A stretch of DNA of 64,000 nt from the NCBI GenBank assembly GCA_014728085.1, contig WJMF01000099.1:62001-126000 (forward strand), written 5' to 3'. Shown piece by piece: positions 11,201 through 55,078 of this stretch. Source of the DNA: Candidatus Zhuqueibacterota bacterium. GTDB taxonomy: Bacteria; Zhuqueibacterota; Zhuqueibacteria; Residuimicrobiales; Oceaniaggregativiventaceae. Within the stretch, counting starts at the first letter, position 1. Each line of letters opens with the position of its first letter. Below the pieces are notes generated by a model, which was not told where the DNA came from, ran no database searches, and saw only the letters and a program-made list of their open reading frames with translations. Position numbers and translations under genes: made by a program.

Positions 11201-11341
11201 AAATTAATGGCAATTGACGCTCAGCTATTGTTTTTTAATAATTAAGGTCTGTTTTAGGGTGATGAAAAGTGTATCACGATGAATAGACAAAAAATATTTG
11301 TTTTGTTTTGAGACAAAATCACGTTGTGGAGGTTAATTGTC

Positions 11342-14300
11342 ATGAGAGTTTTGTCCAGGTTCCCCTTTATTTTAATTCTTTGTATGACATTGTGTGCATC
11401 AACGCTTCTGGCACAATCAGAGAGCGACAAATTTGACGGAACCGGTGCACTGAGTGCCAGTTGGGATGCAGATCCAGCGATGGCGAGGTTAAATGGCAGC
11501 TTGCATTTGAGTGCAACCGATGGCAGCTGGCGTTTCGCCGTTTATAATTCTTCATTTGCGGCCAACCGGGTTTCGATGCAGTGGGCGGCAGCGCCGGCGG
11601 CTGATGCCGATGGAGCGGTGGCCAGCGGCTTGTTGCTGGTGGATGGGACGTCGCGCAACTCGAACGGTTACTTTGTCTATTACCATTCCAGCGGTAACTA
11701 TTACCTCTATCGCCTGGAAGGCGGACAACTGCAAACCCCCTGGCTGGATTATTCTCCCAGCTCACCGGCACCAGCTCCTGCCGGCCATTTACAAATTGAT
11801 TATTGGGATGGTAATATTAATGTATATCTGGATGGTAATTTAAAAGCAACCCTTACCGATCCCCAGGGTGAAAGGTATACTGTCCAATACGGCGGTATCG
11901 GACTCTATCCAAATCGCAATAATGACATCGATGGTTTCAAGGTCGAATACAGTACCGATATCGGTGGCGGCGGTGGTGGTGAGCCCGGCGGTGGTGGCGG
12001 TGGTACTGTCGTCGGTAACCTCATCGGTACCACAGATGATTTTTGTCAAACCGATACGGAAAAATGGGCCTATGATCCAAATGCAATGGTTGCAAATTGT
12101 GAATTGGGAATTGATGCGGCTTCTGATGATGGTTGGGATCATGTGTCAGTGAACAAGCGTGCTGGTGCAGCTGGTGCGAAAATCGTATACAGCCCGGACA
12201 ACAGCCAGCAGATCAACGGCTATATTCCCGCCGGGTTTGCTATTCTGATGGATGCGGCCTCTCCTGATGCAAACGGTTATTTGATCACCAAAAGAAATAG
12301 CGTCGTTTTATATCAAATAAGCGGGGGTGTTGTTGGTGATGCTATTAAGAATGTTGCGGCTTCTCAGCCCAATCCGACCCCGGGAGGCTCGATCAAGGTT
12401 ATCATTCAGCAAACCAGCGAAACCAGCAAATTCATACAGTTTTATGTGGACGATCAGCTGGATGTAGAATTTACATTTGACAATGCAACCCCGCTGGAGA
12501 ATGCCTATGTCGGTGCGGTACAATATTCAACTTCTTCCAGTACCAACCTGGCCAATATTACGGAATATACAACCTATATCGAAGGCGGAGGGGATCCGGA
12601 AAATGTGGAAATGGTCAGCGGAGATGGTCAAAGCGGTCTTATCGAACAATGGTTACCTGATACGCTTAAGGTCAAAGTCACGGCGGAAGATGGCGAAACG
12701 CCGGTCAGTGATGTAGCTGTTGACTTTAATATTATCCAGCCGCTCAACACCGGCGGCGCAGAGCTTAGTGTAAATAATTTTCAATTTGACGGACGTTTAT
12801 GGGCTGAGGCTGAAATCGGGACCATGTCTCCCGGTCTTGGTCAGGTGGTTGCCGATAATCAGGCATCCAATCAACAGGCGGTGTATGTCAACTATGTCGC
12901 CGGAAGTCGTGGTCAGGTCGCCTTTGAAGTGCCTTTTTATGTTCCGGAACAGCGAACATTTGAGGTTTATGCCCGATATAAAGCGCCTTCTCTGGATGAA
13001 AACCGTTATTATGTAGAAATAGATGGTGCCAACCGCACCGTACGGCGTGATTTTGTTGCTCCCATGACTGCATGGAACTGGAACCTGGTTTATCCGAGCA
13101 TTACGCTGGACAAAGGAAACCATACGGTTGGATTTGTGGTCTATCATACCGGATGGTCAATCGATAAAATTCTTATCGTCGATCGCCAGTTGGGCTATAC
13201 CCCTGGTGGTGAAGGCGGCTCCGGACCGATTTTTCCCAATTTAACGGATAACCGAGGTATTGCCGGTACATTGGTAAAATTCGGCACAAAAGCCGATTCC
13301 AATGTCGTGGTTCGCGCATCCGTCTCAAAGTCGGACGGTACCCTGTTGACTCCGGTTGATTTTGTATTAAATCCAAATCCCGGTCCCGCCACCACGATGA
13401 TTCAGAATCCGAATACAAGCTATCCGGTTCCCGGCTATGCCGGTCAGTCCACCCCGGTTTCCGTTGTGGTCATGGATCAATATGATAACCGGGTGGGGGG
13501 ATCAAACATTACCTGGCAGCTGGTCAAAGGTCAGGGCGCTACGGTGAATCCAAGCGTTTCCCAGTCGGATCAAAGCGGAATTGCATCGACTAATGTAACA
13601 CTCGGTTTTTTGGATACGGAATACGAGGTGCAGGCGGTGAATGCTGCTTTATCGGGGTCACCACATACGATCCCCATTCTCATAGGAGAAACACCGGATC
13701 GTGTCGAACCCGTCAGCGGTGCCAATCAGACCGCTAACGCCGGTGAAACGTTGCCCTTGCCTTTGGTGGTCAAGGTTTCCAAGGATGACGGCAGCGGATT
13801 TGCCAATTATCCGGTCAAGTTTAATGTCACTCTGGGAGATGGAACGGTCAAGAATGTCAATGGAGCGGAAGAAGGCGATGTTATCACCATCAATACGGAC
13901 GCAAACGGACTTGCTCAGGTTTATTGGACTTTGGATCCTCGAGTAGGTAATGATAACCAGGTTACGGTCGAGGCTCCGGCAGTAGCGGGAAGCGGATTTA
14001 CCTTCACCGCCACAGGTACTCTTGGACCGCCGGAAAAATTCACCAAGGTCAGCGGCGACAATCAGCAGGGTCCCATTCTGATGGAATTACAGGATCCTTT
14101 TGTCGTGCGCGTTACCGACAAGCACGATAATCCGATAGCCGGACACAAAGTGACCTTTAACAAAACAGCCGGTTCGAATGCCAAATTGATAAATCCCCTT
14201 GATCCCATCGCTGCCCCGGATACGTTTCTGGTTGCCTATACCGACGTTAACGGAGAAGCAAAAGCAAAATTGATCATGGGAAATCAGATTGGTGAATTGC

Positions 14301-17300
14301 ATCAAGTCACGGCTACAGCTCAAAACCTGACTCCTGTACATAGTTTTCAGGCCAGCCCCTCCGGCCGCAGTGCCAGTCAACTCGTTATGGTAAGTGGCGA
14401 TGACCAAATTGCGCCGGTGACTCAGGATTTGCTTGAAGATTTTGTCGTTCAGATCCTTGCTCCGGATGATACCCCGATTGAAGGACATCCGGTAAGATTC
14501 GAGGTTATCAAGGGAGGCGGCAACATCAGCGGACAGGCCGCCAGAACCGTCAATACGGATGAAAACGGCTATGCCAGAATACGGCTCTCGCTGGGGACCA
14601 CGGCCGGAGATACGACCCAGGCCGTCAGAGTGACTTCTTATCGGGAAGGCTCCACTGACTATCACCTCGATAATTCACCGATGAAATTCTATGCCTCGGC
14701 ATCTCCGGGGCCGGCATCGATTTTAACAACCGATGGTCCGGATACCCTGAGAGCGCCTGCCGGCTCTACAGTCGAAGTACGCGCCAGGGTAACGGATATC
14801 TATAACAACCCGGTATCAGGACATCAAGTGACTTTTGAAGTTCAGGGAGGCGGTGGAGACCTTATTGATACCCAGGGCGAATCCTCTTCCAAGGTTGTTG
14901 ATACCAATGATGCCGGAATTGCGGTGGTCTCCTGGCGCATGCCACAGGAAGTCGGATTCTATCAGGTGCTTGCCATCGCCATTAGGGAAGGCGGTCAGTT
15001 TCTCAGCGGTGCTCCTTTACCGTTTCCCGGTATTCGCGAGCCCGGATTGGCGCAAAATCTGACCAAACTGAATGCCGACACGCTGGTGGGTACCGTCAAT
15101 CAGGAACTGGATGAAAAAATCAGGGTCAAAGTTACCGACCAGTATGGCAATCCGGTTCCCAATTTCCGCGTTGTCTTCCGGGTTACCGAAGGAGGCGGAA
15201 AGGTAAATGGAGCCACGCAGACCGAGGCGATTACATCAGCGGATTCCGGTATTGCTGAAACATCCTGGGTCCTTGGAAGAAACGCCGGCGTTGCCAACAA
15301 CCTGGTCGAAGCGCGCGCAGCCATTAGTCAGGGTGGATTGATTGTTTTCAAGGCTACAGGACAGCCGGATACGCCGAAACGCATGAATGTCGATCAGGCT
15401 TCTACCGGTCAGGCGGGTAACGTGGGCGAAAAACTTTCCTATCCCATCAGAGTGCGAGTGGTCGATCAATTCGATAACGGCGTTCCGAATCATCAGGTTG
15501 TCTTTTTTGTCAGCGGTGAGGACAGCATCAAGGGCAATATTGACGGCATGCCTGAACAGCAGGTGATGACCGGAAATAATGGCTGGGCAGAGGTTGAATG
15601 GACATTGGGTAAGCGTCCGGGATCGCTCAACAACACGATGATCGTAAGTTCGAAATACAATCAGAACGATCTTATCAACTCTCCCTATACGTTCAGGGCC
15701 AGCTCTTCGGTCGGTAATCCCTATAAAGTGGTCAATATTACAGCCAATAAAGATAGCTTAAAGACAGCGACCAACAGCCAATTGCCTGAATTGCTTAAAG
15801 TTAAAGTCACGGATCAATTTGACAATCCCATTGCCAATCATAGCGTAACCTATCAGGTATTGAGCAGAGTCGATGCCGGAGGTGGTGGTATTGACGATAC
15901 CCTGACGACAGAAAAAACAGTAAAAACGAATTCAGAAGGTGTGGCGGCTGTCAAGTTCTACACCGGTAAATTCGCCGGCAACAAGCGCAATCACGTGGTT
16001 GCCAGAGCGGAATTCAATGGCACCCAGTTGCTCTATTCTCCGGTGGATTTTTATATTTCCGCTTATAGTACCAATGCAGATCATATCGAAATATATGATG
16101 GCAACAATCAGGTGGCGGCTGTTGGTGAAGACTTGCCAAAGGAGTTGATGGTCATTGCCCGGGATCAATTCGATAATCCGGTTCGTCAGGCTCAACCTGT
16201 TACGTTCAGGGTCATTGCCGGTGATGGATTTTTTCTGCCGGATTCATTGCGGGAAAAGACCGTTACCACAGGAACAAATGGAATTGCTAAAATTCGCTGG
16301 CGTCTGGGGACAATTGCCGGGATCAACAACAATGTGGTTGAAGTTACGGCCAACAATGGTGTTAAAAATTTGGGAACCTTGCGTTTTACCGCCCGGGCCA
16401 ACGCTGATATAACCAGCGCTGTAAAGTCGACAATTATCGCTTCTCCGGCGACGCCGATACAGGTTTCTCAGGGAAGCAACAAAGCCACGATCGTGGTAAC
16501 ACTGCGTGACAAGTTTGGCAATCCTGTTGTCAATAAGGCCGTTTTTCTCGAAGCCTCCGGACAAAACCCGATCATATCGCAACCGACGCAGGTATCCGAT
16601 GTCAATGGTCAGGTAACCGGTGCAATAGCTTCGATGACTGCCGGGGTCAAATACGTCTGGGCCCGTGATATGAACAACAGTATCACTGTAGCCGATTCGG
16701 TGGAAGTCACGTTTGTACCACTTGAGGCTTACAGAATTGAGAAAGCGTCAGGACAGAACGGAGATCAGCAGACAAGAAATACGGGCACGGTTTTGCCTCA
16801 CCCGCTTCGCGTCGTGGTTGTCGATATGTTCGATAATCCAATTCCGGATTATCAGGTTGAATATGCTGTGGTGAGCGGTGGCGGCATTTTTCTGGATGGC
16901 GTAACCGTACGCACAGATAGCAGTGGTGTTGGTTCAAACCGTTTTCAATTGGGTAATGAACAATTCAATTCAGTAGAGGTACGTGCACCGGGCCTGGTTG
17001 GATCGCCGCAGACCTTTATCGAACGAGGGATCAATTCACCTCCTTCAAATATTATGATCGTTGACGGTAATTCGCAGCAGGCCGGTCCCGGAAATGAATT
17101 GCCCAATCCGCTCAAAGTACGCGTGGTCGATCAGAGTCAATGGCCCCTGGCAGGTGTAAAGGTGCGGTTTGATGTCGTGATCAATAAAGGTACCATTCTG
17201 GGACAAAATGTTCAAGTTACCGATCAAAATGGCGAAGCAAAAGTTCGGGTAACCGTCGGAACCACGATCGGGGCAAACTTGTATGGCGTTTCTCTGCCCG

Positions 17301-19153
17301 ACTATCAGGCCCTGACGCCGGTAACGTTCTCCGCAAAGACAACGGTAATTCTCGGGCAGGCGGAACGTTTACAGCTCAGCCATGGAAATCAACAGCATAC
17401 CACGGTTGGTCAGCAATTTCCACAGCCTTTTATTGTTATTGCAAAAGATGATTTCGATAATCCGGTACCGGATGTGCCGGTGACCTTTTCAGTCCTGGAC
17501 GACGGTTCTTATCCGGGAATCGGTACTTTTGTTGATGGAAGCAAGAGTTATCTGGCTAAAACCGATCAGCAAGGTCAGGCCAGAGTGTATTACCAGGCCG
17601 GGACGGTTGCCGGTATTAACAAGGTTACAGCCTGTCTGCCGAGCGTACAGGGATGTATTGACTTTGAAGTTGTCGGTGATCCGGATTATCCTTTTAGCAT
17701 GCACTATCATTCCGGTAACGGAACCGATGGCCTCGGCCAGCATGGTGAAAAAGGCCAGCCATTGTTGAATCCTGTCTCTGTTATTATTCGGGATCAATAT
17801 GGTAATCCGGCGCCCAATGGCAGCGTGCATTTTTCAGTGTTGTCTCCAACTCACGGACGGATTCAGGAAGCTCAGCCGGTTCTTTCCAATTCAAAAGGAA
17901 TCGCCCAGGCCACCTGGATCATCGGAGACTCGCAGAAAAACCAGGCTGTTGCGCTGTCCTATCTGCCCGGCAACAATGAACCTTATCAGGTTAATTTTAC
18001 CGCCTGGGGCGACGATAACAAGTATCCCAAGCTGCAAAACATGCCTGGTGATATGACCGTTAACGAAGGTCAGCCTGTCAGTTTTACCGTGCAGGCACGG
18101 GATGATGATGGCGATCAACTTTATTATACGGTTGAAAATTTACCCGATAGCGCGGAATTCAATCCGGTAACACATGGTTTTTACTGGAAACCTCTTTATT
18201 CACAAGGGTCTCCGGAGGGTAAAGTTTATTCACCGGTCTTTGTCGTCACTGATAGCCGGGGAGGAAAGGATATGTATAGGCTTAATATAAAGGTATATAA
18301 TGTCAGCATTCCCCCGACTATAACATTTACCTCACCGAGTCAGCAACTGTCGATGACAAAAGATGTTACACAAAATTTTGTCGTCGATGCATATGATCCG
18401 GACGGTCAGCAGGTCTTTTATACCTGGTACGTTGATGGCGTTGCTGTCTACACCGGAAGTAATGCTTTTACGTTCTATCCCGGTTCTTATGTTTATGGTT
18501 CGCACAGCGTAAAGGTAATCGTTTCTGATATGGATAATGCCCGTACCTCGCATCAGTGGTACCTGCAACTAAAAACGTCTGTTGAACTGAACACGTTTAG
18601 CTGTTCGGCAGCGCCTTATCAGGGCGTTGAATTGTTCTGGGAAACGGCTTCCGAGGTCGATAATAGCGGCTTTAATGTCTATCGCAGTCTGTCAAAAGAG
18701 GGAACCTATAAAAAGATCAATACGGAATTGATTCTCTCCAACCCGGAACGGCGATATGAATTTATAGATGAACAGGTCCAGGCCGGTCGCGAATATTTTT
18801 ACAAGATCGAGGATGTGAGTTTGTACGGATTCCAAACAAAGCATGGACCCGTTTCAATCCAGGCCGCAGTGCCCAGGGACTTTGAATTGTCTCAGAATTT
18901 TCCAAATCCGTTCAATCCGACGACGATGATTCGTTTTCAATTGCCCAAACCGGTTCGCGTGCGTCTGGATATCTATAATATCCAGGGGCAGCTTGTTAAT
19001 ACACTCGTTGATGCCATCAGGGAAACCGGCTATCATGAGCTTGTTTGGAATGGTCGTAATGATGCAGGTGAACTGGTTAGCTCCGGAGTGTATTACTATC
19101 GTCTGGTTGCTGATGATTTTACCATGACCAGGAAGATGGCTTTTCTAAAATAG
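11342..19153 (+). CDS. Giant secreted protein with about 15 Big_1-like Ig repeats and a T9SS type A sorting domain
   Basis: 2603 residues. The start is the ATG 9 bases after GGAGG; an in-frame TTG six codons upstream overlaps that site. Residues 1-25 are a signal peptide ending LLAQS. Two concanavalin/LamG-like modules follow (about 30-415), separated by a Gly-rich linker, with a CBM35/golvesin-like module near 490-620 (AEAEIGTMSPG, FEVYARYKAPS). About 15 units of roughly 100 residues then run to about 2230; the recurring core is V-x-V-x-D-x-[FY]-[DG]-N-P-V/I-P-x-x-x-V-x-F, the invasin-type bacterial Ig-like (Big_1) pattern. Next come a cadherin-like domain (about 2235-2330), another Ig-like domain, and a T9SS tail from about 2510 with NFPNPFNPTTMIRFQL. 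The protein is predicted to cross the outer membrane by T9SS and act as an adhesin or surface stalk. A sigma-54-type promoter precedes it and a terminator follows. Confidence 0.85.
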   Translation: MRVLSRFPFILILCMTLCASTLLAQSESDKFDGTGALSASWDADPAMARLNGSLHLSATDGSWRFAVYNSSFAANRVSMQWAAAPAADADGAVASGLLLVDGTSRNSNGYFVYYHSSGNYYLYRLEGGQLQTPWLDYSPSSPAPAPAGHLQIDYWDGNINVYLDGNLKATLTDPQGERYTVQYGGIGLYPNRNNDIDGFKVEYSTDIGGGGGGEPGGGGGGTVVGNLIGTTDDFCQTDTEKWAYDPNAMVANCELGIDAASDDGWDHVSVNKRAGAAGAKIVYSPDNSQQINGYIPAGFAILMDAASPDANGYLITKRNSVVLYQISGGVVGDAIKNVAASQPNPTPGGSIKVIIQQTSETSKFIQFYVDDQLDVEFTFDNATPLENAYVGAVQYSTSSSTNLANITEYTTYIEGGGDPENVEMVSGDGQSGLIEQWLPDTLKVKVTAEDGETPVSDVAVDFNIIQPLNTGGAELSVNNFQFDGRLWAEAEIGTMSPGLGQVVADNQASNQQAVYVNYVAGSRGQVAFEVPFYVPEQRTFEVYARYKAPSLDENRYYVEIDGANRTVRRDFVAPMTAWNWNLVYPSITLDKGNHTVGFVVYHTGWSIDKILIVDRQLGYTPGGEGGSGPIFPNLTDNRGIAGTLVKFGTKADSNVVVRASVSKSDGTLLTPVDFVLNPNPGPATTMIQNPNTSYPVPGYAGQSTPVSVVVMDQYDNRVGGSNITWQLVKGQGATVNPSVSQSDQSGIASTNVTLGFLDTEYEVQAVNAALSGSPHTIPILIGETPDRVEPVSGANQTANAGETLPLPLVVKVSKDDGSGFANYPVKFNVTLGDGTVKNVNGAEEGDVITINTDANGLAQVYWTLDPRVGNDNQVTVEAPAVAGSGFTFTATGTLGPPEKFTKVSGDNQQGPILMELQDPFVVRVTDKHDNPIAGHKVTFNKTAGSNAKLINPLDPIAAPDTFLVAYTDVNGEAKAKLIMGNQIGELHQVTATAQNLTPVHSFQASPSGRSASQLVMVSGDDQIAPVTQDLLEDFVVQILAPDDTPIEGHPVRFEVIKGGGNISGQAARTVNTDENGYARIRLSLGTTAGDTTQAVRVTSYREGSTDYHLDNSPMKFYASASPGPASILTTDGPDTLRAPAGSTVEVRARVTDIYNNPVSGHQVTFEVQGGGGDLIDTQGESSSKVVDTNDAGIAVVSWRMPQEVGFYQVLAIAIREGGQFLSGAPLPFPGIREPGLAQNLTKLNADTLVGTVNQELDEKIRVKVTDQYGNPVPNFRVVFRVTEGGGKVNGATQTEAITSADSGIAETSWVLGRNAGVANNLVEARAAISQGGLIVFKATGQPDTPKRMNVDQASTGQAGNVGEKLSYPIRVRVVDQFDNGVPNHQVVFFVSGEDSIKGNIDGMPEQQVMTGNNGWAEVEWTLGKRPGSLNNTMIVSSKYNQNDLINSPYTFRASSSVGNPYKVVNITANKDSLKTATNSQLPELLKVKVTDQFDNPIANHSVTYQVLSRVDAGGGGIDDTLTTEKTVKTNSEGVAAVKFYTGKFAGNKRNHVVARAEFNGTQLLYSPVDFYISAYSTNADHIEIYDGNNQVAAVGEDLPKELMVIARDQFDNPVRQAQPVTFRVIAGDGFFLPDSLREKTVTTGTNGIAKIRWRLGTIAGINNNVVEVTANNGVKNLGTLRFTARANADITSAVKSTIIASPATPIQVSQGSNKATIVVTLRDKFGNPVVNKAVFLEASGQNPIISQPTQVSDVNGQVTGAIASMTAGVKYVWARDMNNSITVADSVEVTFVPLEAYRIEKASGQNGDQQTRNTGTVLPHPLRVVVVDMFDNPIPDYQVEYAVVSGGGIFLDGVTVRTDSSGVGSNRFQLGNEQFNSVEVRAPGLVGSPQTFIERGINSPPSNIMIVDGNSQQAGPGNELPNPLKVRVVDQSQWPLAGVKVRFDVVINKGTILGQNVQVTDQNGEAKVRVTVGTTIGANLYGVSLPDYQALTPVTFSAKTTVILGQAERLQLSHGNQQHTTVGQQFPQPFIVIAKDDFDNPVPDVPVTFSVLDDGSYPGIGTFVDGSKSYLAKTDQQGQARVYYQAGTVAGINKVTACLPSVQGCIDFEVVGDPDYPFSMHYHSGNGTDGLGQHGEKGQPLLNPVSVIIRDQYGNPAPNGSVHFSVLSPTHGRIQEAQPVLSNSKGIAQATWIIGDSQKNQAVALSYLPGNNEPYQVNFTAWGDDNKYPKLQNMPGDMTVNEGQPVSFTVQARDDDGDQLYYTVENLPDSAEFNPVTHGFYWKPLYSQGSPEGKVYSPVFVVTDSRGGKDMYRLNIKVYNVSIPPTITFTSPSQQLSMTKDVTQNFVVDAYDPDGQQVFYTWYVDGVAVYTGSNAFTFYPGSYVYGSHSVKVIVSDMDNARTSHQWYLQLKTSVELNTFSCSAAPYQGVELFWETASEVDNSGFNVYRSLSKEGTYKKINTELILSNPERRYEFIDEQVQAGREYFYKIEDVSLYGFQTKHGPVSIQAAVPRDFELSQNFPNPFNPTTMIRFQLPKPVRVRLDIYNIQGQLVNTLVDAIRETGYHELVWNGRNDAGELVSSGVYYYRLVADDFTMTRKMAFLK

Positions 19154-40628: not shown

Positions 40629-41777
40629 ATGCAAAAAAATATCTCAGCGCTTGACCTGGCGATTAAACTGGTACAGATCAATTCCGTTACTCCCTCCCAA
40701 AAGATCGACGCACAAACACCGGGGGAGCAGGATATGGCGCAATTTCTATATGATTATTTAACACCACAAAATTTTCAGTGTGAACTGATTCCGGTAAAAG
40801 AAAATCGTCCCAATTTTATTGCCAGGCACGATAGTTATGATCCGGAATTACCGACTCTGGCGTTTGAAGCCCATCTGGATACGGTGGATGTCGAAAATAT
40901 GTCGATAGAACCGTTCGCCGCCGGTATTCGGGATGACCGCCTTTATGGCAGGGGGGCTTGTGATACGAAAGGCACTATGGCTGTAATGATTACAGCCATG
41001 TTGGAGTGGTATCGCAAACAGCCTGACACGTTTAATCTCATTTTCATCGGCACCATGGGTGAAGAACTCGGGACCATCGGTGCCAAGGCCCTGATCAAAA
41101 CAAAACCCGATGTGCAAATGGTTTTGGTCGGCGAACCAACCCATTGTGTTCCGGTTGTTGTACATAATGGATTATGGCGTTTTAAACTCTTGACCGACGG
41201 ACGGGCCTGTCATAGTTCAACACCGCATGAAGGAGAAAATGCCATTGAAAAAATTCGTCCCATATTCAATTATTTGTTGACCGATTTTAAACCGTTTTTT
41301 GAGAAATTCAGGGGCAACACCTTTTCCATTACGCAGTTTCATGGGGGCGTAATGATGAATATTGTTCCGGATCGCTGCTCGCTTACCATTGATGCCAGGT
41401 ATGGCCCGGAAACAGATCTGAACGCCTTACAGAAATCACTATTTAAACAGCTCGAGCAAATCGATAACTATCACTATGAAGAAATTCAACGTGAACCTGC
41501 TTTCAGGTCAGAAGGTGCGCTGCTCTATCTGCTGGATAAAGCACTTTACGATTTGGGGATCGAGTCCGTTCATGGCCGCGAGCCATGGTTTTCCGATGCG
41601 GCGCATTTTAGCCAGGCCAATTATGATTGTGTGGTGTGGGGAGCGGGATCGATTCAACAAGCGCATACGAGAGATGAATATGTTTCGATAAAGCAATTGC
41701 ATAAAGCCCTTCAGGTTTTAAACAGAATGTTAATACATTGCAAAGAGTATTTTTATGATAAACAAAAAACCACTTAG
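40629..41777 (+). CDS. M20-family zinc metallopeptidase/deacylase (ArgE/DapE/CPG2 type)
   Basis: 382 residues. Metal ligands are H82 and D84 (AHLDTV), D112 (GRGACDTKG), the catalytic E145 with E146 (MGEELGT) and E169 (VGEPTH). A dimerisation-domain insertion contains ACHSSTPHEGENAIE. The group includes acetylornithine deacetylase, succinyl-diaminopimelate desuccinylase and carboxypeptidase G2. ArgE is unlikely to be needed because ArgJ is present, so the substrate is left open. It overlaps the next radical SAM gene by 23 bases. Confidence 0.82.
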   Translation: MQKNISALDLAIKLVQINSVTPSQKIDAQTPGEQDMAQFLYDYLTPQNFQCELIPVKENRPNFIARHDSYDPELPTLAFEAHLDTVDVENMSIEPFAAGIRDDRLYGRGACDTKGTMAVMITAMLEWYRKQPDTFNLIFIGTMGEELGTIGAKALIKTKPDVQMVLVGEPTHCVPVVVHNGLWRFKLLTDGRACHSSTPHEGENAIEKIRPIFNYLLTDFKPFFEKFRGNTFSITQFHGGVMMNIVPDRCSLTIDARYGPETDLNALQKSLFKQLEQIDNYHYEEIQREPAFRSEGALLYLLDKALYDLGIESVHGREPWFSDAAHFSQANYDCVVWGAGSIQQAHTRDEYVSIKQLHKALQVLNRMLIHCKEYFYDKQKTT

Positions 41778-42984
41778 CTCGGTTTTAATCAAACCGGCCG
41801 GACCAGATTGTAATCTCAGCTGTGATTACTGTTTCTACCTGCAGAAAAGCGAGTTGTTTGAGCATTCCGTTCACCGAATGTCCGACGATATTCTTAAAGA
41901 GACTGTTCGGCAGACGATGCAATCCGGTGCTGATCAGGTCTCTTTTGGATGGCAGGGTGGAGAGCCAACCCTGATGGGACTTGATTTTTTTGAACGTGTC
42001 ATCCAATATCAGCAAAGATTCGGACGACCGCATCAGGTGGTCGGTAATGGATTGCAAACAAATGGCATGGTCATCGACGCAGAGTGGGCTGATTTTTTAC
42101 AGCAAAACCAGTTTTTGGTTGGGCTGTCGCTGGATGGCCCTGTTCATATACACGACCGATATCGAAAAACAAAGAGCGGTAAATCCACATGGGAGCGGGT
42201 TGTAAAAGCCCGGGATATCATGTTGGAAAAAGATGTACAGGTCAACGCCCTGGTCGTGGTTAATGATTATTCGGGTCAATATCCTGAAGAAATCTACCAG
42301 TATCATAAGGAAAACGGATTGTCATTCATGCAGTTCATACCCTGCGTGGAGCCGCATCCTCTGGACAAGGAGGCAGCGGCACCATTTTCGGTAGATGGTG
42401 AGACGTTTGGCCGTTTTTTATGCCGGGTTTTTGATCTTTGGATAGAGGATTTTCGTTACGGTCAGCCCACAACATCGGTGAGGTTTTTTGATTCGGTGTT
42501 TTATACCTATGTGGATAGGCAGCCGCCGGAGTGTACCCTGTTGGAGGAGTGCGGTGTTTATGTTGTGGTTGAACACAACGGCAATGTTTATTCCTGTGAC
42601 TTTTTTGTTGACCCCGACTGGTACCTCGGAAATGTTATGCAAGATCAGCTCACAGAGCTTCTCAACTCGCCACGGCAGCTTCAATTCGGCCGGGTGAAAT
42701 CGGCTTTGCCACCAGAGTGTAAACCCTGTAAATGGTTATCGTACTGCAGAGGCGGATGTCCCAAAGATCGCAGCAGCGATCCGCGTGACAAGGGGTCGAA
42801 TCATTTTTGTAAAGCTTATAAACTGTTTTTCGAACATGCCGATGAAAAATTAAAACAACTTGCCTATAAATGGAAGCTTGAGCACGGTATGATAAAACCG
42901 CAACAAAAGAATAACGTGGGAAGAAATGATCCCTGCCCCTGCAACAGCGGACGCAAATACAAAAATTGTTGCGGCGTCATTTGA
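41755..42984 (+). CDS. Anaerobic sulfatase-maturase-type radical SAM/SPASM enzyme with SEC-C tail
   Basis: 409 residues. The radical SAM cluster site is C19-x3-C23-x2-C26 (CNLSCDYC), followed by WQGGEPTLMGLDFF and GLSLDGPVHIHDRYR, as in anaerobic sulfatase-maturating enzymes. The SPASM region has C-rich segments NVYSCDFFVDPD, CKPCKWLSYCRGGCPKDR and NHFCKAYK. The last 20 or so residues are a SEC-C zinc motif ([19 protein letters not shown]). Such enzymes convert a Cys or Ser of a sulfatase to formylglycine. No sulfatase lies in the window, so another client is possible. Confidence 0.85.
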   Translation: MINKKPLSSVLIKPAGPDCNLSCDYCFYLQKSELFEHSVHRMSDDILKETVRQTMQSGADQVSFGWQGGEPTLMGLDFFERVIQYQQRFGRPHQVVGNGLQTNGMVIDAEWADFLQQNQFLVGLSLDGPVHIHDRYRKTKSGKSTWERVVKARDIMLEKDVQVNALVVVNDYSGQYPEEIYQYHKENGLSFMQFIPCVEPHPLDKEAAAPFSVDGETFGRFLCRVFDLWIEDFRYGQPTTSVRFFDSVFYTYVDRQPPECTLLEECGVYVVVEHNGNVYSCDFFVDPDWYLGNVMQDQLTELLNSPRQLQFGRVKSALPPECKPCKWLSYCRGGCPKDRSSDPRDKGSNHFCKAYKLFFEHADEKLKQLAYKWKLEHGMIKPQQKNNVGRNDPCPCNSGRKYKNCCGVI

Positions 42985-48850: not shown

Positions 48851-51800
48851 ATGGCTAAATCAATCGAAAATATATTTGCAAAACTGTTTGGCGGTACCGC
48901 TACGGATAAATTTCTGAAAGAGGCTTCTCAGGTCGTTGAGGAGATTAATCAGTTCGTCGCCGATTATGAAAACATCACTGATGATGAATTAAAAGCAAAA
49001 ACTCAGGAATTTAAATACCGGCTACATGCCGGTGAAACGCCGGATGATATTTTACCGGAAGCGTTTGCAACTGTCAAGGAGACTTGTAAACGGTTGTTGG
49101 GCAAGAAATGGATAGTGAGAGGTCAGGAGACCCCCTGGGATATGGTTCCCTATGATGTACAGCTGGTCGGCGCTCTGGCCTTGCATCAGGGAAAAATAGC
49201 AGAAATGGCCACCGGAGAGGGAAAAACGCTTGTCGCCACCATGCCGCTTTATCTCAATGCGCTTTCCGGGGAAGGTGCACATCTGGTAACGGTTAATGAC
49301 TATCTGGCTCAGCGTGACTGTGAATGGATGGGTAAGGTTTATGAGTTTTTGGGGTTGAAAGCCGTCGCCCTTCACGGTGATCTGACGCCGGAAGAAAAAC
49401 GCGACGCCTATAATGCGGATATAACCTATGGTACCAACAATGAGTTTGGTTTCGATTACCTGCGTGACAATATGGCCATCGATGTATGGTCTGTCGTGCA
49501 ACGACCTTTGAACTATGTTATCATCGATGAGGTGGATAGTATTCTGATCGATGAGGCCAGGACGCCGCTTATTATTTCCGGCTCGGTGGGGGCACCGCGA
49601 AATGTTTATCGCGATTTAAAACCGATCGTTTCCAATCTGTATAAAAAACAAAAAGAACTCGTTGAACAGTTGATTCGGGAGGGAAAAGCGCTTCTCGAAA
49701 GCGACGAAGAAAAAGCCGGCTTGATTTTGTTGCGCGCCCAGCGTGGCGATCCTAAAAGCCCCGCCCTTCTTGAATTGCTGACCTCTAAATTTTGGGTCAA
49801 AAAACTTATAGAGCGAATTCAGGGACAATTTGAAATTAATAAAACCATGTCCGAGGTCGATGCAGAGCTCTATTTTACCATCGATGAAAAAAGCAATGTG
49901 GTGGATATTACGGAAAAGGGAAGAATTTTTCTTTCCGGAGGGCAGGATGAGGATATTGTTCGAAAAATTAAAACACTCGATGACCTCGATAACGGACTAC
50001 AACAATTGAGCAAACGAAAGGATGCCGTCCGTTATTATAATGAAACGGACTCTGGAAGCGGCATGGATATGACGCTGGAGGGAAAGCTGTTTCTCTGCGG
50101 CGCTTCGGCTCAGGTTGAAGAGGCAATGCGGAGTGCGTTAACTATGCTCGATGAACGCATGCAGGAATTTCCCGCTGCCGTCAGCAGACTGATAGAGCAA
50201 AAAAATATGGATAAAAATTCTGCATGGCGTCGATTTTTTAACATGTCGAAAAAGGCGGATAAACTGGTTCAGGGTATCAGTGCCGACGGTATCGCATTTC
50301 TCAAAGAAAAAGAGCAGGATCAATCTTACCAAAAAGCTGTGCAGGGTCTCGAAAAGCTTTTTGAATTTATCGGTCAGGAATTGGATGACGAGGATAACCC
50401 CAGAATTCAAAATGAAAGACGGCAGCTCTATATAAAAACTTTATTTGAACTCTCCTCACAAAGTCATTGCCCGATTGGGCTGACCGATGAGGGCAAGGCC
50501 GCAGTCATTGCGATTTTACAGGATGTAAATCCAGAGATGCTGCCCTTTATACATAAAATCAGAACCATGCTCAACCAGGAAAAGGGTGAGACGTCGCCGC
50601 AAAGCGCAAGTCCGCCTCTGCTCGCCACGCATCAGGATTATTTTGAATTTGCAGATAATGGTGTGGTTATCAAACACATCACCGAGAAGGGCCGCATTGC
50701 GCTTTTAGGCGGTAATCCGGATCTATATGTTTTACCGGACAGAAGCATTGTTGAAAGCCGCGACCAGGCTACTCAGGATCTCCTGGATCGCACATTGAAT
50801 CAATCTCAATTTGATTATATCGGCCGGGTTCAGGCCATTGAAAAAATGAATTCAGACCTGACAGCCCTCTGTGAATATGATGAACAAAAGGCTGCTGAAA
50901 AACAGTCATCTTTTGAATTTTACAAAAAAGTAAACATCTATGATCAGGAAAGAATTCAGTTTACCGATAAGGGCATGGCCGTGGTCAGCGACTATGCTTC
51001 CCAAACGGAGAGCCTCTTAAATGCCCTGGATGCGGCGTTGCACAAGCAGGATCAGGCGGTTTTCCAATATAACGATCGCAATCAACCTGTGGCCCTGACC
51101 AAAACGGTTTTGGATGAGCTGCTCGGCACCCCCTACAGTCAGATTCAGGATAAAATCAAGGAATGGCAGCAAAACCTGAATGAAAAACAGGACAGCAATT
51201 CTGTCCGGTTGCGATTGAATCTCGATGACTATCTATTTTCACAGTTCCCTCAGCTCAAAGATAAATTTGCGAGTCCTTCCCGCATCTATGAAGAGCTTGA
51301 ACGCATCGACCGCGTTTTTAAACTGCGACTGACCAGTTTGACCTCTGATGAATTATCCCCCCGGGATAAACAGAGGGTGATATATCGTTATTTTGATGTC
51401 GATGGAGAACCCGACTTTTCCGCTACGGAAACCGGACTAAAAATCACCGGCCTGTCCGATTCGGGTTTTCGCCTGCTGATGGGCGATGCGCTCAATCGCC
51501 GGCGGGTGGCGGAAAAGCTTGTTGAATTAACAAATGATCCGGATATCGATTCGGAAGTGTTGTTCGAATGGAGTCAATCGGGGTATCCCCGTTCTTTTAA
51601 AAAAAGCGCCAAAACCCGCCTGGTCGATGGCCTGCCGTTTTATCGGTATGACAAGGAATTCTCCGACTTTCGCGACGAAATATTGCGCATCAGCAGTAAA
51701 AAAGTAAATTCCCGTTCCGAGCTGGAAAATATTCTGCCAAAGGACAAGATACACCTCAAAAACAAAGGTATTCTTCTCGATGAACGCGAGTTGAATGATC

Positions 51801-54800
51801 TGCTTTCAAAGGCCCATGCGCCCAATTTGGTTTTGACTCAGAATGAAATAGAGTCCTGGTTTCATGTGCACTTTGAGCGCAAGCCTCAGCGTGAATTGGA
51901 AAGCCGGCGCGATCGCCTGTGGCGGGATTATAACCGCGTTGAGGAGCGCATCCAAAATATTTCTCAGCTTTTAAAAGCCTACACGCTCTTTCATAAAGAC
52001 GTTGATTATGTGGTTAAAACCCTTGAAGAGAGCGATTTGCGCCGTCACGGCGGAGGAAAGGGTAAAAATGCCGTCATGATTGTTGACCAGTTCACCGGCA
52101 GATTGATGCCCGGTCGTCGCTTTAGTGAGGGATTGCATGAAGCCCTTGAAGCAAAAGAGAATGTGGAGGTTCAGGCTGAAACACAAACTTTGGCGACAAT
52201 TACCATACAGAATTTTTTCCGTCTTTATAAAAAAATAGCCGGAATGACCGGTACGGCCGAGACCGAGTCACAGGAGTTTTTCAGTACTTACAAACTGGAT
52301 GTTGTTGTCGTTCCCACCAATAAACCCGTGGTACGGGATGATTATAACGATGTTATATATCGCACAAAAAATGAAAAATACAATGCTCTGATCGAGGAAG
52401 CCATTCAGATGCATGAGCAGGGACGCGCTGTTCTCATCGGTACCATTTCAGTCGATGTATCAGAGCGGCTGAGCCAGCTTTTAACCCGGCGCGGTATCCC
52501 CGTAGCCAATTGGCTCAAAAAGGGGGATGTCTCCAGCGAACTGGAATCAGGCAAATTTCATACCGTGTTGAATGCTAAATTCCACAAATCCGAGGCAGAA
52601 ATCGTCGCCAAGGCGGGATTGCCGGGCTCGATTACGATTGCGACCAACATGGCCGGCCGCGGTACTGATATAAAACTGCATCCCGCTGTAAAAGAACAAG
52701 GTGGTTTGCATATTATCGGTTCTGAAAAACATGAGGCACGTAGAATTGACCGTCAGTTGCGAGGAAGAGCCGGACGTCAGGGAGATCCGGGCTCATCGCG
52801 TTTTTATTTGTGTCTTGAAGATGATTTGATGCGTCTCTTTGGCTCTGACCGCATTACAAATATCATGAGCCGGTTGGGCCCGTCGGAGCAGGGAGAGCGA
52901 ATCGAACATCCCCTGATTACGCGATCTATTGAGCGCGCTCAAAAAAAAGTTGAAGAACGGAATTTCGAAATCAGGAAACAATTGCTCGAATACGATGATG
53001 TGCTGAATGAACAGCGTAAGATTATATACAAGCGCAGGCTAAATCTGCTGGGATTTGCAGAGATAGAGGATATGGTGGAATCCAAAGCAAAGCGTTATTT
53101 CGGGGAAGAGGATAACCGGGCAACGTGGGATGTTGATGGACTGATAACTAATTTAAAGGAATACTTTAATCAGGATCCGCCTTTTTCAGCAAACGAACTC
53201 GAGCCCCAAAATATAGATGAAATTAAAAGAAGGCTGGGAGATTGGATTTCTCAACAGCTGGATGAACGGCGTCACATTGAATCGATGCGAATCCGGCATC
53301 GTATACTGGGATGCTGTCAGATGGATGAATTGATTGAATATATTGTCGGCCATCTGATTCACCTGCACCGAATGGGAAAATCCGATTTCCAAAATTGGAA
53401 CCTGGAAGGACTGGAAACCGATCTTGAACGTATATTCAACGACAAACCGGATGTTCGGCAAAAAGTTGATAATTCCGAACAATTAAGAATCAGCCTGGTA
53501 GAGTGGGGCAAACAGGTTTACAGAGAGGATTATAAGGAACAACACGCTGAATTTGAGCAGCTCTTGTTCGGTCGCTTGTCCTTTGAAGAATTTGTCGATG
53601 TTTTTCTCTTTGCCATGATGCAATTTCATCTCAATCCGGCGCAACCTCCTGTTTCCTGGGAAAGCAAACGGTTTTTCCATGACCTTGAACGTGTTTTCGG
53701 GTCAACTCCGGAAGTGGGTCTCAATGAAATACGCACCATAAGACGGCAAAAATTGCAGGAGATTCTGCGTGACTGGGTCTCCGGCCTGAATATACATTCG
53801 GACAACTATCTCCTTTACCGTCACCGCATACTCGGCTTGCTATCATTGTCAACGTTTGTAGATGCCCTGGCTTTATCTTGTCTGGTCGATGAAGAAGGGC
53901 GTTTGTTGCGCGACGAGTTTCAACTTGCTCAAAAGCAGCAACTACTGGATAAAGTCTTTGGTGAGGGTATTGCTGAACGTAATCGCACAGAGAACCAGGA
54001 GCGATATCGCGAGAATATTATGTCAAGTGCGCGTGAAGCATTCAACAGCGAGTACCGCAAGCGGCGTTCCGCTTACGACACGGTTATGCTTGCCGGTGCC
54101 ACCAATGATGCTTTTATCCAGGCAGTCGTCCAGGTGATGGTAGATCAGGCCATCCAGAGCGGTGATGCGGATAAAACACTGTCACAAATGCTCGACTTTA
54201 TCTTTCTCAACCGGCCGGAAAAGCTCGGATCTGTTGTTCAAGATCAAAGCAAGATTAATGAATTGAAAAAAGATCTGATTGCCTGGGCGTTGCGATTACA
54301 CAGTGCCATTCATTATCAGCAGAAACGGCTCGAACAGGCCCGTTTGAGCAGTGAAATTGTAAGAGATTCGATCCTGACCATGATAGATGATACGCTCTAC
54401 AATGTAATTTCCAATCTACTCGGTGAATCAGATGATCTTGATCGGGAACTGGTGGGCAGATTACAGACCGAATGCCGGCTTGTATTTCGTCAATCACCGC
54501 GAATTGCGGATGGCGGTGACGAGGCCTTTGATCCCGCTCATATACTGGAGGATTTAAATCAGTGGGCTCAGTCCATTTATCTGCGACGTATCAGGGAATT
54601 GGGTGAAGATTTGGCTGCCCGTTATGAACGCTATTATATGCTCGATAAAATAGACGATAATTGGCGCCAGCATCTTCATGCGATTGATGAATTACGCGAG
54701 GGAATTGGATTGCGCGGTTATGGGCAAAAGGATCCCTTGCTCGAATACAAATCCGAAGCCTATAGAATGTTCGTTCAAACCATTGATCGAATGAATCGGG

Positions 54801-55078
54801 ATGTGGTTTCCACCCTGTTTACTATTTTCGATGTCGGTGGTGAACTGGAGGAAAAAAAGCAGCAACGTTCAGAACCAAAAGAATATGTAACCACACATTC
54901 TCAGGTTCAAACCTTTCAGCAGACGGCTCCGGCAACCTCCCCGGCGGCCCAGGTTCAGAGCAGAGGGCAGGCCGGCGGCGCACAAAAGCCGAAACAAGCT
55001 GTTAAAGTGGGCCGAAATGACCCCTGTCCCTGTGGTAGTGGCAAAAAGTATAAACAATGCTGTGGCAGCAAAGTTTGA
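48851..55078 (+). CDS. secA: Protein translocase ATPase SecA, giant variant (2075 residues)
   Basis: Drives preproteins through SecYEG by ATP hydrolysis. Core parts are intact: Walker A MATGEGKT (119-126), DEVD box (226-229), the PPXD return segment [13 protein letters not shown] (from 1043), [32 protein letters not shown]2 motifs [10 protein letters not shown] (about 1265) and [17 protein letters not shown] (from 1300), [13 protein letters not shown], the scaffold signature [19 protein letters not shown] (about 1927) and a C-terminal SEC-C zinc motif [19 protein letters not shown]. Usual length is about 800-1150. The excess lies in two places: residues about 262-1040 (PPXD, many LTEKG-like units) and about 1426-1925 (six units of about 88 residues with a hhxxhF...P...W pattern). 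The frame is uninterrupted over 6.2 kb. Confidence 0.95.

What the first reader, a model, noticed from the sequence alone, without database searches (positions are those of the whole stretch)
53126..54690. SecA helical region carries six tandem units of about 88 residues
Between the [13 protein letters not shown] helix and the canonical scaffold signature, units begin near residues 1426, 1516, 1603, 1691, 1778 and 1866, so the period is constant at 87-90. Each reads roughly as [W/L]-x-x-x-x-L-x-x-x-h-x-x-h-F-x-x-x-P, about 20 residues, L-x-x-W-x-x-x-h, Arg-rich helix, then a helix such as [51 protein letters not shown], ending in [17 protein letters not shown]. Only the last copy keeps the normal SecA HSD residues. 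Normal SecA has one copy of this wing/scaffold segment. The copies have diverged in both protein and DNA, so this is an old amplification, not an assembly repeat. It would lengthen the part of SecA that contacts the preprotein and SecY, and may relate to export of very long proteins such as the 2603-residue T9SS protein.
Basis: partly seen in the sequence, partly recalled or inferred. Interest (0 to 1): 0.9.

Follow-up and report, generated by a model that had tools for sequence, protein, structure and literature searches.

The report
Giant SecA with two amplified domains
In one order of uncultured bacteria, the motor that pushes proteins out of the cell (SecA) has doubled to about 2,070 residues because two parts that flank its protein-gripping clamp were copied over and over in tandem, a change found in every sampled member with a recovered SecA and in no other bacterium examined here.

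Summary
The window's only SecA is 2,075 aa, against about 1,040 in the rest of its class. Residues 1406-1935 hold six in-register units of 85-92 aa. Each is homologous to, or in register with, the single helical wing domain (HWD) of ordinary SecA, and only the last runs into the canonical two-helix finger. There the native PPXD strand-strand-helix element appears about nine times in all. Both arrays are predicted as confident repeating folds.

SecA of 2,057-2,100 aa occurs, intact or fragmented, in 21 of 22 sampled genomes of the order. It is absent from 41 other genomes of the class and 19 of the phylum. Elsewhere, listed SecA frames do not exceed 1,188 aa. One origin is supported (100/100), each copy is conserved by position, and selection is purifying.

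SecY, SecDF and trigger factor are unchanged, and SecB is essentially absent class-wide. Most likely the arrays form an accessory lobe around the clamp that handles preprotein or replaces the PPXD-HWD dimer contact. That function is inferred.

The parts
48851..55078 (+). secA, 2075 aa, the only full SecA in this genome
   Evidence: Pfam SecA_DEAD, P-loop_SecA, SecA_SW, SecA_PP_bind and SEC-C all hit
48851..49510 (+). NBD1 first part (res 1-220, approximate end), Walker A GEGKT 122-126; the DEVD motif (226-229) lies just beyond; all invariant in the order
49511..49936 (+). PPXD, native N-terminal part (res about 221-362) shared with ordinary SecA of the class
   Evidence: alignment to ordinary SecA
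49937..51901 (+). PPXD insert (res 363-1017), 655 aa, in the order only; predicted helix/strand-strand/helix/helix repeats, mostly pLDDT 80-93
49853..50014 (+). PPXD unit A1 (res 335-388), native hairpin-helix copy (ITEKGRIFL)
   Evidence: E 4e-11 to ordinary SecA PPXD
50015..50215 (+). PPXD unit A2 (res 389-455)
   Evidence: A1-A2 E 4.2e-11, score 52.7 vs null max 14.2
50216..50422 (+). PPXD unit A3 (res 456-524)
   Evidence: A1-A3 31.0 vs null max 15.6
50423..50620 (+). PPXD unit A4 (res 525-590)
   Evidence: A2-A4 30.4 vs 13.6; A4-A5 34.9 vs 13.7
50621..50830 (+). PPXD unit A5 (res 591-660), conserved about as strongly as the motor (0.80-0.84 over res 601-650); keeps the native 'PDLYVLPD' continuation
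   Evidence: A1-A5 36.8 vs 18.5; native PPXD E 3.3e-5; conservation
50831..51043 (+). PPXD unit A6 (res 661-731)
   Evidence: A1-A6 29.3 vs 15.4
51044..51250 (+). PPXD unit A7 (res 732-800), degenerate
   Evidence: A7-A9 31.5 vs 14.9
51359..51538 (+). PPXD unit A8 (res 837-896)
   Evidence: A3-A8 25.8 vs 11.8
51539..51694 (+). PPXD unit A9 (res 897-948), degenerate
   Evidence: A4-A9 28.7 vs 16.4
51902..52075 (+). PPXD, native C-terminal part (res 1018-1075)
   Evidence: res 1018-1057 to ordinary SecA PPXD, E 5.8e-13
52076..52960 (+). rest of NBD1, then NBD2/IRA2 (res 1076-1370); includes a 19-aa insert in NBD2 at res 1218-1236 (window 52502-52558)
52961..53065 (+). Helical scaffold long helix with [13 protein letters not shown] (end, res 1371-1405)
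53066..53335 (+). Helical wing unit B1 (res 1406-1495)
   Evidence: ordinary HWD E 1.1e-8
53336..53596 (+). Helical wing unit B2 (res 1496-1582)
   Evidence: ordinary HWD E 1.2e-6
53597..53857 (+). Helical wing unit B3 (res 1583-1669), closest to B1 (shared RHRILG motif)
   Evidence: B1-B3 E 1e-14; ordinary HWD E 2e-4
53858..54112 (+). Helical wing unit B4 (res 1670-1754), closest to B2
   Evidence: B2-B4 E 2.7e-8
54113..54379 (+). Helical wing unit B5 (res 1755-1843), weakest by sequence
   Evidence: B2-B5 22.8 vs null max 16.9; helix pattern
54380..54622 (+). Helical wing unit B6 (res 1844-1924), aligns to ordinary HWD over its full 92 columns (to res 1935)
   Evidence: E 4.4e-7
54623..54829 (+). 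Two-helix finger (res 1925-1993), canonical, tip [10 protein letters not shown] nearly invariant
54830..55078 (+). C-terminal tail with SEC-C zinc motif (res 1994-2075) and stop
   Evidence: PF02810

Best explanation
SHOWN: this is the housekeeping SecA ATPase of its order. The two domains that flank its preprotein clamp, the bulb of the PPXD and the helical wing domain, were each expanded into tandem arrays (about nine PPXD strand-strand-helix units in total, six HWD units). This happened once, on the stem of the order. The arrays have since been inherited vertically, with each copy specialised and under purifying selection. The ATPase core, scaffold helix, two-helix finger and zinc tail are canonical. 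INFERRED: SecA still docks on an ordinary SecY and pushes with an ordinary two-helix finger. The two arrays grow from neighbouring places on the cytosolic face (in ordinary SecA the PPXD packs near the HWD) and form one large accessory lobe around the clamp. This lobe contacts the unfolded preprotein over a longer stretch, or steadies the PPXD swing, or supplies inside one chain the PPXD-HWD contacts that ordinary SecA is proposed to make between the two monomers of a dimer. Confidence is about 0.95 for the anatomy and single origin, and about 0.4 for the lobe having a preprotein-handling or clamp-control role.
For: HWD array: in-register profile alignments above shuffled nulls; homology of B1, B2, B3 and B6 to the single ordinary HWD, B6 over its full 92 columns; predicted repeating three-helix units, pLDDT mostly 80-95, matching the HWD described as three helices and a loop inserted in the HSD bundle (PMC7503281). 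PPXD array: in-register alignments above nulls among A1-A9; A1 and A5 match the ordinary PPXD hairpin, E 4e-11 and 3.3e-5; predicted E-E-H-H units, mostly pLDDT 80-93. Foldseek significant hits for both models are SecA only. Distribution: insert in 21/22 genomes of the order, 0/41 of other orders in the class, 0/19 elsewhere in the phylum; ordinary length in the rest of the class; listed frames elsewhere at most 1188 aa. One clade 100/100 on motor-core sites, sister to ordinary SecA of the class. Units group by position, not by species. dN/dS 0.09-0.18 in the arrays. Only SecA in 19 of the 21 genomes. In ordinary SecA the PPXD lies near the HWD in the closed state and PPXD/HWD cross-contacts are proposed for the dimer (PMC7503281); the PPXD binds signal sequences and rotates to form the clamp (PMC8082313).
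Against: No direct evidence of function. The arrays were modelled separately, NBD1/NBD2 came out poorly in those models, and contact between the two arrays is untested. Whole-domain TM-scores to solved SecA are low because the models are incomplete. The arrays evolve faster than the motor, so part of them may be tolerated bulk.
Confidence: 0.5

Rival explanations
1. Covalent dimer mimic: the added PPXD and HWD copies reproduce inside one chain the PPXD-HWD cross-contacts of the SecA dimer, making the enzyme a permanent pseudo-dimer or an obligate monomer.
For: Exactly the two domains proposed to cross-contact in the dimer (PMC7503281) are the two expanded, and they expanded together in one stem lineage.
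Against: The motor domains were not duplicated. A single extra copy of each would be enough, yet there are about eight extra PPXD units and five extra HWD units. Interaction between arrays was not modelled.
Confidence: 0.2
2. Constructive neutral growth: the copies accumulated without benefit and are now kept because removing them would unfold or misplace neighbouring parts; there is no new function.
For: Arrays evolve faster than the motor (dN/dS 0.09-0.18 vs 0.004-0.08); no change in SecY, SecDF, trigger factor or SecB pattern; no visible change in cargo length.
Against: Copy number is fixed and lengths are 2057-2100 aa across 17 full sequences that share about 55% identity. Unit A5 is conserved about as strongly as motor blocks (0.80-0.84). 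Two independent domains at one functional site grew on the same stem.
Confidence: 0.25
3. Adaptation to very long exported proteins.
For: A 2609-aa FlgD_ig protein lies in the same window.
Against: Sister orders with ordinary SecA have equally long FlgD_ig proteins (2635, 2647 aa).
Confidence: 0.07
4. Docking platform for another partner (ribosome, an unknown chaperone or a cytosolic targeting factor).
For: Large, soluble, hydrophilic, folded additions on the cytosolic side; SecB is missing in nearly all genomes.
Against: Both arrays are acidic (median net charge -20 and -25), which argues against bulk rRNA or acidic-lipid binding. SecB is also missing in sister orders with ordinary SecA, and trigger factor is present.
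Confidence: 0.15
5. Assembly or binning artefact.
For: All genomes are draft assemblies; one genome has a frameshift and one an internal stop.
Against: 17 full-length open frames in genomes from several families, orthologous unit by unit, dN/dS well below 1; no DNA-level repeat.
Confidence: 0.01

Closest known systems
SecA (general, SecA1), e.g. E. coli 2FSF/2VDA, B. subtilis 1M6N/5EUL/6ITC, T. maritima 3DIN
   Same: NBD1, NBD2, PPXD, HSD, two-helix finger and zinc tail all present and alignable; Walker, DEVD and arginine-rich motifs intact; single copy per genome in most members
   Different: About 1000 residues longer; one HWD becomes six, one PPXD strand-strand-helix becomes about nine
Bacteroidota-type SecA (NCBIfam NF009536 / PRK12901, 1118 positions)
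   Same: Best-scoring NCBIfam model (1062.9 bits)
   Different: Falls below that model's cut-off of 1493 bits; a model of 1118 positions cannot hold the two arrays
Lineage-specific SecA inserts: 50 aa in Thermotogales/Aquificales, 76 aa in Thermales (PMC7023208)
   Same: Clade-marking insertions in SecA, inherited within an order
   Different: Those are single loops in the ATPase domain; here about 655 and about 435 residues, in PPXD and HWD, built by tandem duplication of native elements
SecA2 proteins (C. difficile 6SXH, M. tuberculosis 4UAQ)
   Same: Known natural variation in HWD size (HWD shortened in many SecA2, PMC7503281)
   Different: Variation is in the opposite direction; SecA2 is a second paralogue, whereas this is usually the only SecA

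Membership tests
SecA translocase ATPase (general SecA) | Motor domains with Walker A, DEVD and arginine finger motifs | tested here: met
   PF07517 2.6e-118 and PF21090 7.6e-69; G122-T126, D226-D229 and the GRGTD / QLRGR.GRQGD residues invariant in 17 orthologues
SecA translocase ATPase (general SecA) | Two-helix finger that inserts in SecY | tested here: met
   res 1925-1993 align to ordinary SecA; tip [10 protein letters not shown] nearly invariant
SecA translocase ATPase (general SecA) | PPXD present | tested here: met
   PF01043 9e-21 at 1031-1100; N-terminal half at 335-364, with 655 aa between the halves
SecA translocase ATPase (general SecA) | C-terminal zinc-binding SEC-C motif | tested here: met
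   PF02810 1.2e-9
SecA translocase ATPase (general SecA) | Single HWD of about 80-90 aa and overall length about 800-1200 aa | tested here: not met
   Six HWD units, 2075 aa; a usual but not a defining property; this departure defines the variant
SecA translocase ATPase (general SecA) | Curated NCBIfam SecA score cut-off | tested here: met
   TIGR00963 883.6 vs 800 and NF009538 950.8 vs 814
SecA translocase ATPase (general SecA) | Preprotein-stimulated ATPase and translocation through SecYEG | not testable with these tools
   Needs biochemistry
SecA2 (accessory) | Second paralogue next to a general SecA; passes a SecA2 model cut-off | tested here: not met
   The only full SecA in the genome; TIGR03714, TIGR04397, NF012136 and TIGR04221 all below cut-off

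The most novel reading that the evidence does not exclude
A clade rebuilt the clamp region of an essential, otherwise conservative motor by parallel tandem amplification of its two clamp-flanking domains. The result is a single-chain translocase with a built-in preprotein-holding lobe, or a covalent stand-in for the SecA dimer, that works by a modified clamp cycle.
Probability: 0.4. Interest if true: 0.88.

Novelty: new variant of a known kind. Interest (0 to 1): 0.78.

Why it matters
SecA is essential and structurally conservative; the largest lineage inserts found in the papers read here are single loops of 50-76 aa. A natural doubling of SecA by multiplying exactly its PPXD and HWD is a ready-made experiment on open questions: what the HWD does, whether SecA works as monomer or dimer, and how the PPXD clamp is controlled. 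It is also a clean case of intragenic repeat amplification inside an essential motor, fixed at the base of an order.

Tried and rejected
hhalign's built-in self mode returned nothing; replaced by sub-profile comparisons. First PPXD coordinates were out of frame, corrected. A tenth PPXD unit (anchor 969) gave no in-register support and was dropped; pairs A6-A7, A8-A9 and A9-A10 in that table overlap in residues and their scores were ignored. 'SecA replaces a lost SecB': rejected as a specific cause, because SecB is essentially absent class-wide. Lost trigger factor, altered SecY or SecDF: not seen. Long-cargo link: no support (the listed rows are a sample by E-value, not a full census). Paper searches for earlier reports of such a SecA found none; the library holds open-licence papers only.

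Full report
WHAT IS THERE. The window (G000:C240) carries one open frame, 48851-55078 on the + strand, coding a 2075-residue SecA between nusB and a DUF494 gene. It is the only full SecA in this 97.9% complete draft genome. All SecA Pfam domains are hit, but PF07516 (wing/scaffold) falls into two distant pieces and PF01043 (PPXD) is hit only in its second half. Alignment with ordinary SecA shows two large extra stretches, about 363-1017 inside the PPXD and about 1406-1885 in the wing region, plus 19 residues at 1218-1236 in NBD2.

CHECK OF THE CLAIM. Using profiles of 17 full-length orthologues (53-57% identical to the window), segments of 1405-1935 align to each other at offsets 87-90, 174-177, 350 and 440, best E 5.9e-12. 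Six units cut at the same phase align within 3 residues of the expected register in all 15 pairs, and 11 of 15 exceed 40 column-shuffled nulls. B1-B3 is the best pair and B4's best partner is B2, suggesting that a two-unit block of about 177 aa was itself copied. Ordinary class-level SecA aligns to B6 over all 92 columns (E 4.4e-7), and to B1 (1.1e-8), B2 (1.2e-6) and B3 (2e-4) over about 60-70 columns. The unit is therefore the helical wing domain, described in solved SecA as three helices and a loop of about 80 residues inserted in the scaffold bundle (PMC7503281). AlphaFold2 gives repeating three-helix units through 1405-1955, pLDDT mostly 80-95. Unit identity is 11-24% and there is no DNA tandem repeat, so the amplification is old.

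The PPXD insert (655 aa) is also a tandem array. Units anchored on the motif h-T-x-x-G-x-x-h-h at 353, 407, 476, 544, 610, 704, 749, 868 and 916 align in register above nulls, for example A1-A2 E 4.2e-11 (52.7 vs 14.2), A4-A5 5.6e-7, A1-A5 2.7e-7, A7-A9 2.5e-6. A1 and A5 match the native PPXD element ELYFAIDEK..IDLTDIGRDALSPN (E 4e-11 and 3.3e-5). The model shows strand-strand-helix-helix units throughout, mostly pLDDT 80-93. Units A7 and A9 are degenerate, and a tenth was rejected. Foldseek finds only SecA at significant E for both models, and the insert has no significant sequence relative among solved structures.

DISTRIBUTION AND ORIGIN. SecA of this kind occurs in 21 of 22 sampled genomes of the order, intact in 17 and fragmented by contig ends, a frameshift or a stop in 4; the 22nd is 78% complete and has no SecA match at all. 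It occurs in none of 41 other genomes of the class and 19 of the phylum. In a search of 232 genomes spread over the domain, no listed SecA frame outside the order exceeds 1188 aa (the row list is cut). A motor-core tree that leaves the arrays out gives the long SecAs as one clade, 100/100, sister to ordinary SecA of the class, so the origin is vertical and single. In unit trees every unit groups by position rather than by species, so the copies existed before the order radiated. dN/dS is 0.09-0.18 in the arrays and 0.004-0.08 in the motor (pairs with finite dS).

WHAT CHANGED WITH IT. Nothing else that was tested. SecY is single and about 450 aa, SecD and SecF are of normal size, trigger factor is present, and SecB is essentially absent in the whole class including orders with ordinary SecA. 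T9SS-type FlgD_ig proteins of 2600 aa occur in sister orders too. Both arrays are acidic and hydrophilic.

HOW IT MOST LIKELY WORKS. The ATPase core, scaffold helix, two-helix finger and zinc tail are canonical, so docking on SecY and pushing should be ordinary (established SecA mechanism, PMC8082313). In ordinary SecA the PPXD binds signal sequences, packs near the HWD in the closed state and swings to NBD2 to close the clamp. HWD residues take part in substrate binding and SecY contact, and PPXD-HWD cross-contacts are proposed for the dimer (PMC7503281, PMC8082313). Expanding precisely these two domains should add a large folded lobe around the clamp. Whether it holds preprotein, steadies the clamp, or replaces the dimer contact is inference. 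Neutral growth remains a serious rival, though fixed copy number and the strong conservation of unit A5 speak against pure bulk.

VERDICT. It is a general SecA by its defining features, in a new and extreme variant. The function of the arrays is open and directly testable.

Noticed in passing
window 52502-52558 (SecA residues 1218-1236): A 19-residue insert in NBD2 with invariant residues (NWLKKGD), absent from ordinary SecA of the class; small but as conserved as the motor.
   Followed up: partly
G016:C166:6412-8376, G017:C5:2290922-2293015; also G025:C20, G026:C31, G036:C10, G046:C157: A second, SecA2-like protein of about 808-856 aa (42-54% identical in aligned segments) in two genomes of the order and in some sister orders.
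   Followed up: no
L068 about 2755-2906 (G017:C1 near 78869-78913) and L069 (G021:C457): The long SecA is split by a frameshift in G017 (5-contig assembly) and by an in-frame stop in G021; probably assembly errors, but the G017 frameshift lies inside the PPXD array and was not checked against reads.
   Followed up: partly
window 11324-19153 (+): 2609-aa secreted protein with seven Big_1 Ig-like domain matches, macroglobulin-like domains (MG2/MG4) and a C-terminal FlgD_ig domain.
   Followed up: partly
window 41755-42984 (+): Radical-SAM/SPASM protein (409 aa) ending in a SEC-C zinc motif like the SecA tail.
   Followed up: no
G000:C129:4501-4797, G001:C272:3774-4061, G017:C1:454694-455002: Weak SecB-like proteins of about 140-156 aa in three genomes of the order only; possibly SecB-like chaperones of toxin-antitoxin systems.
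   Followed up: no
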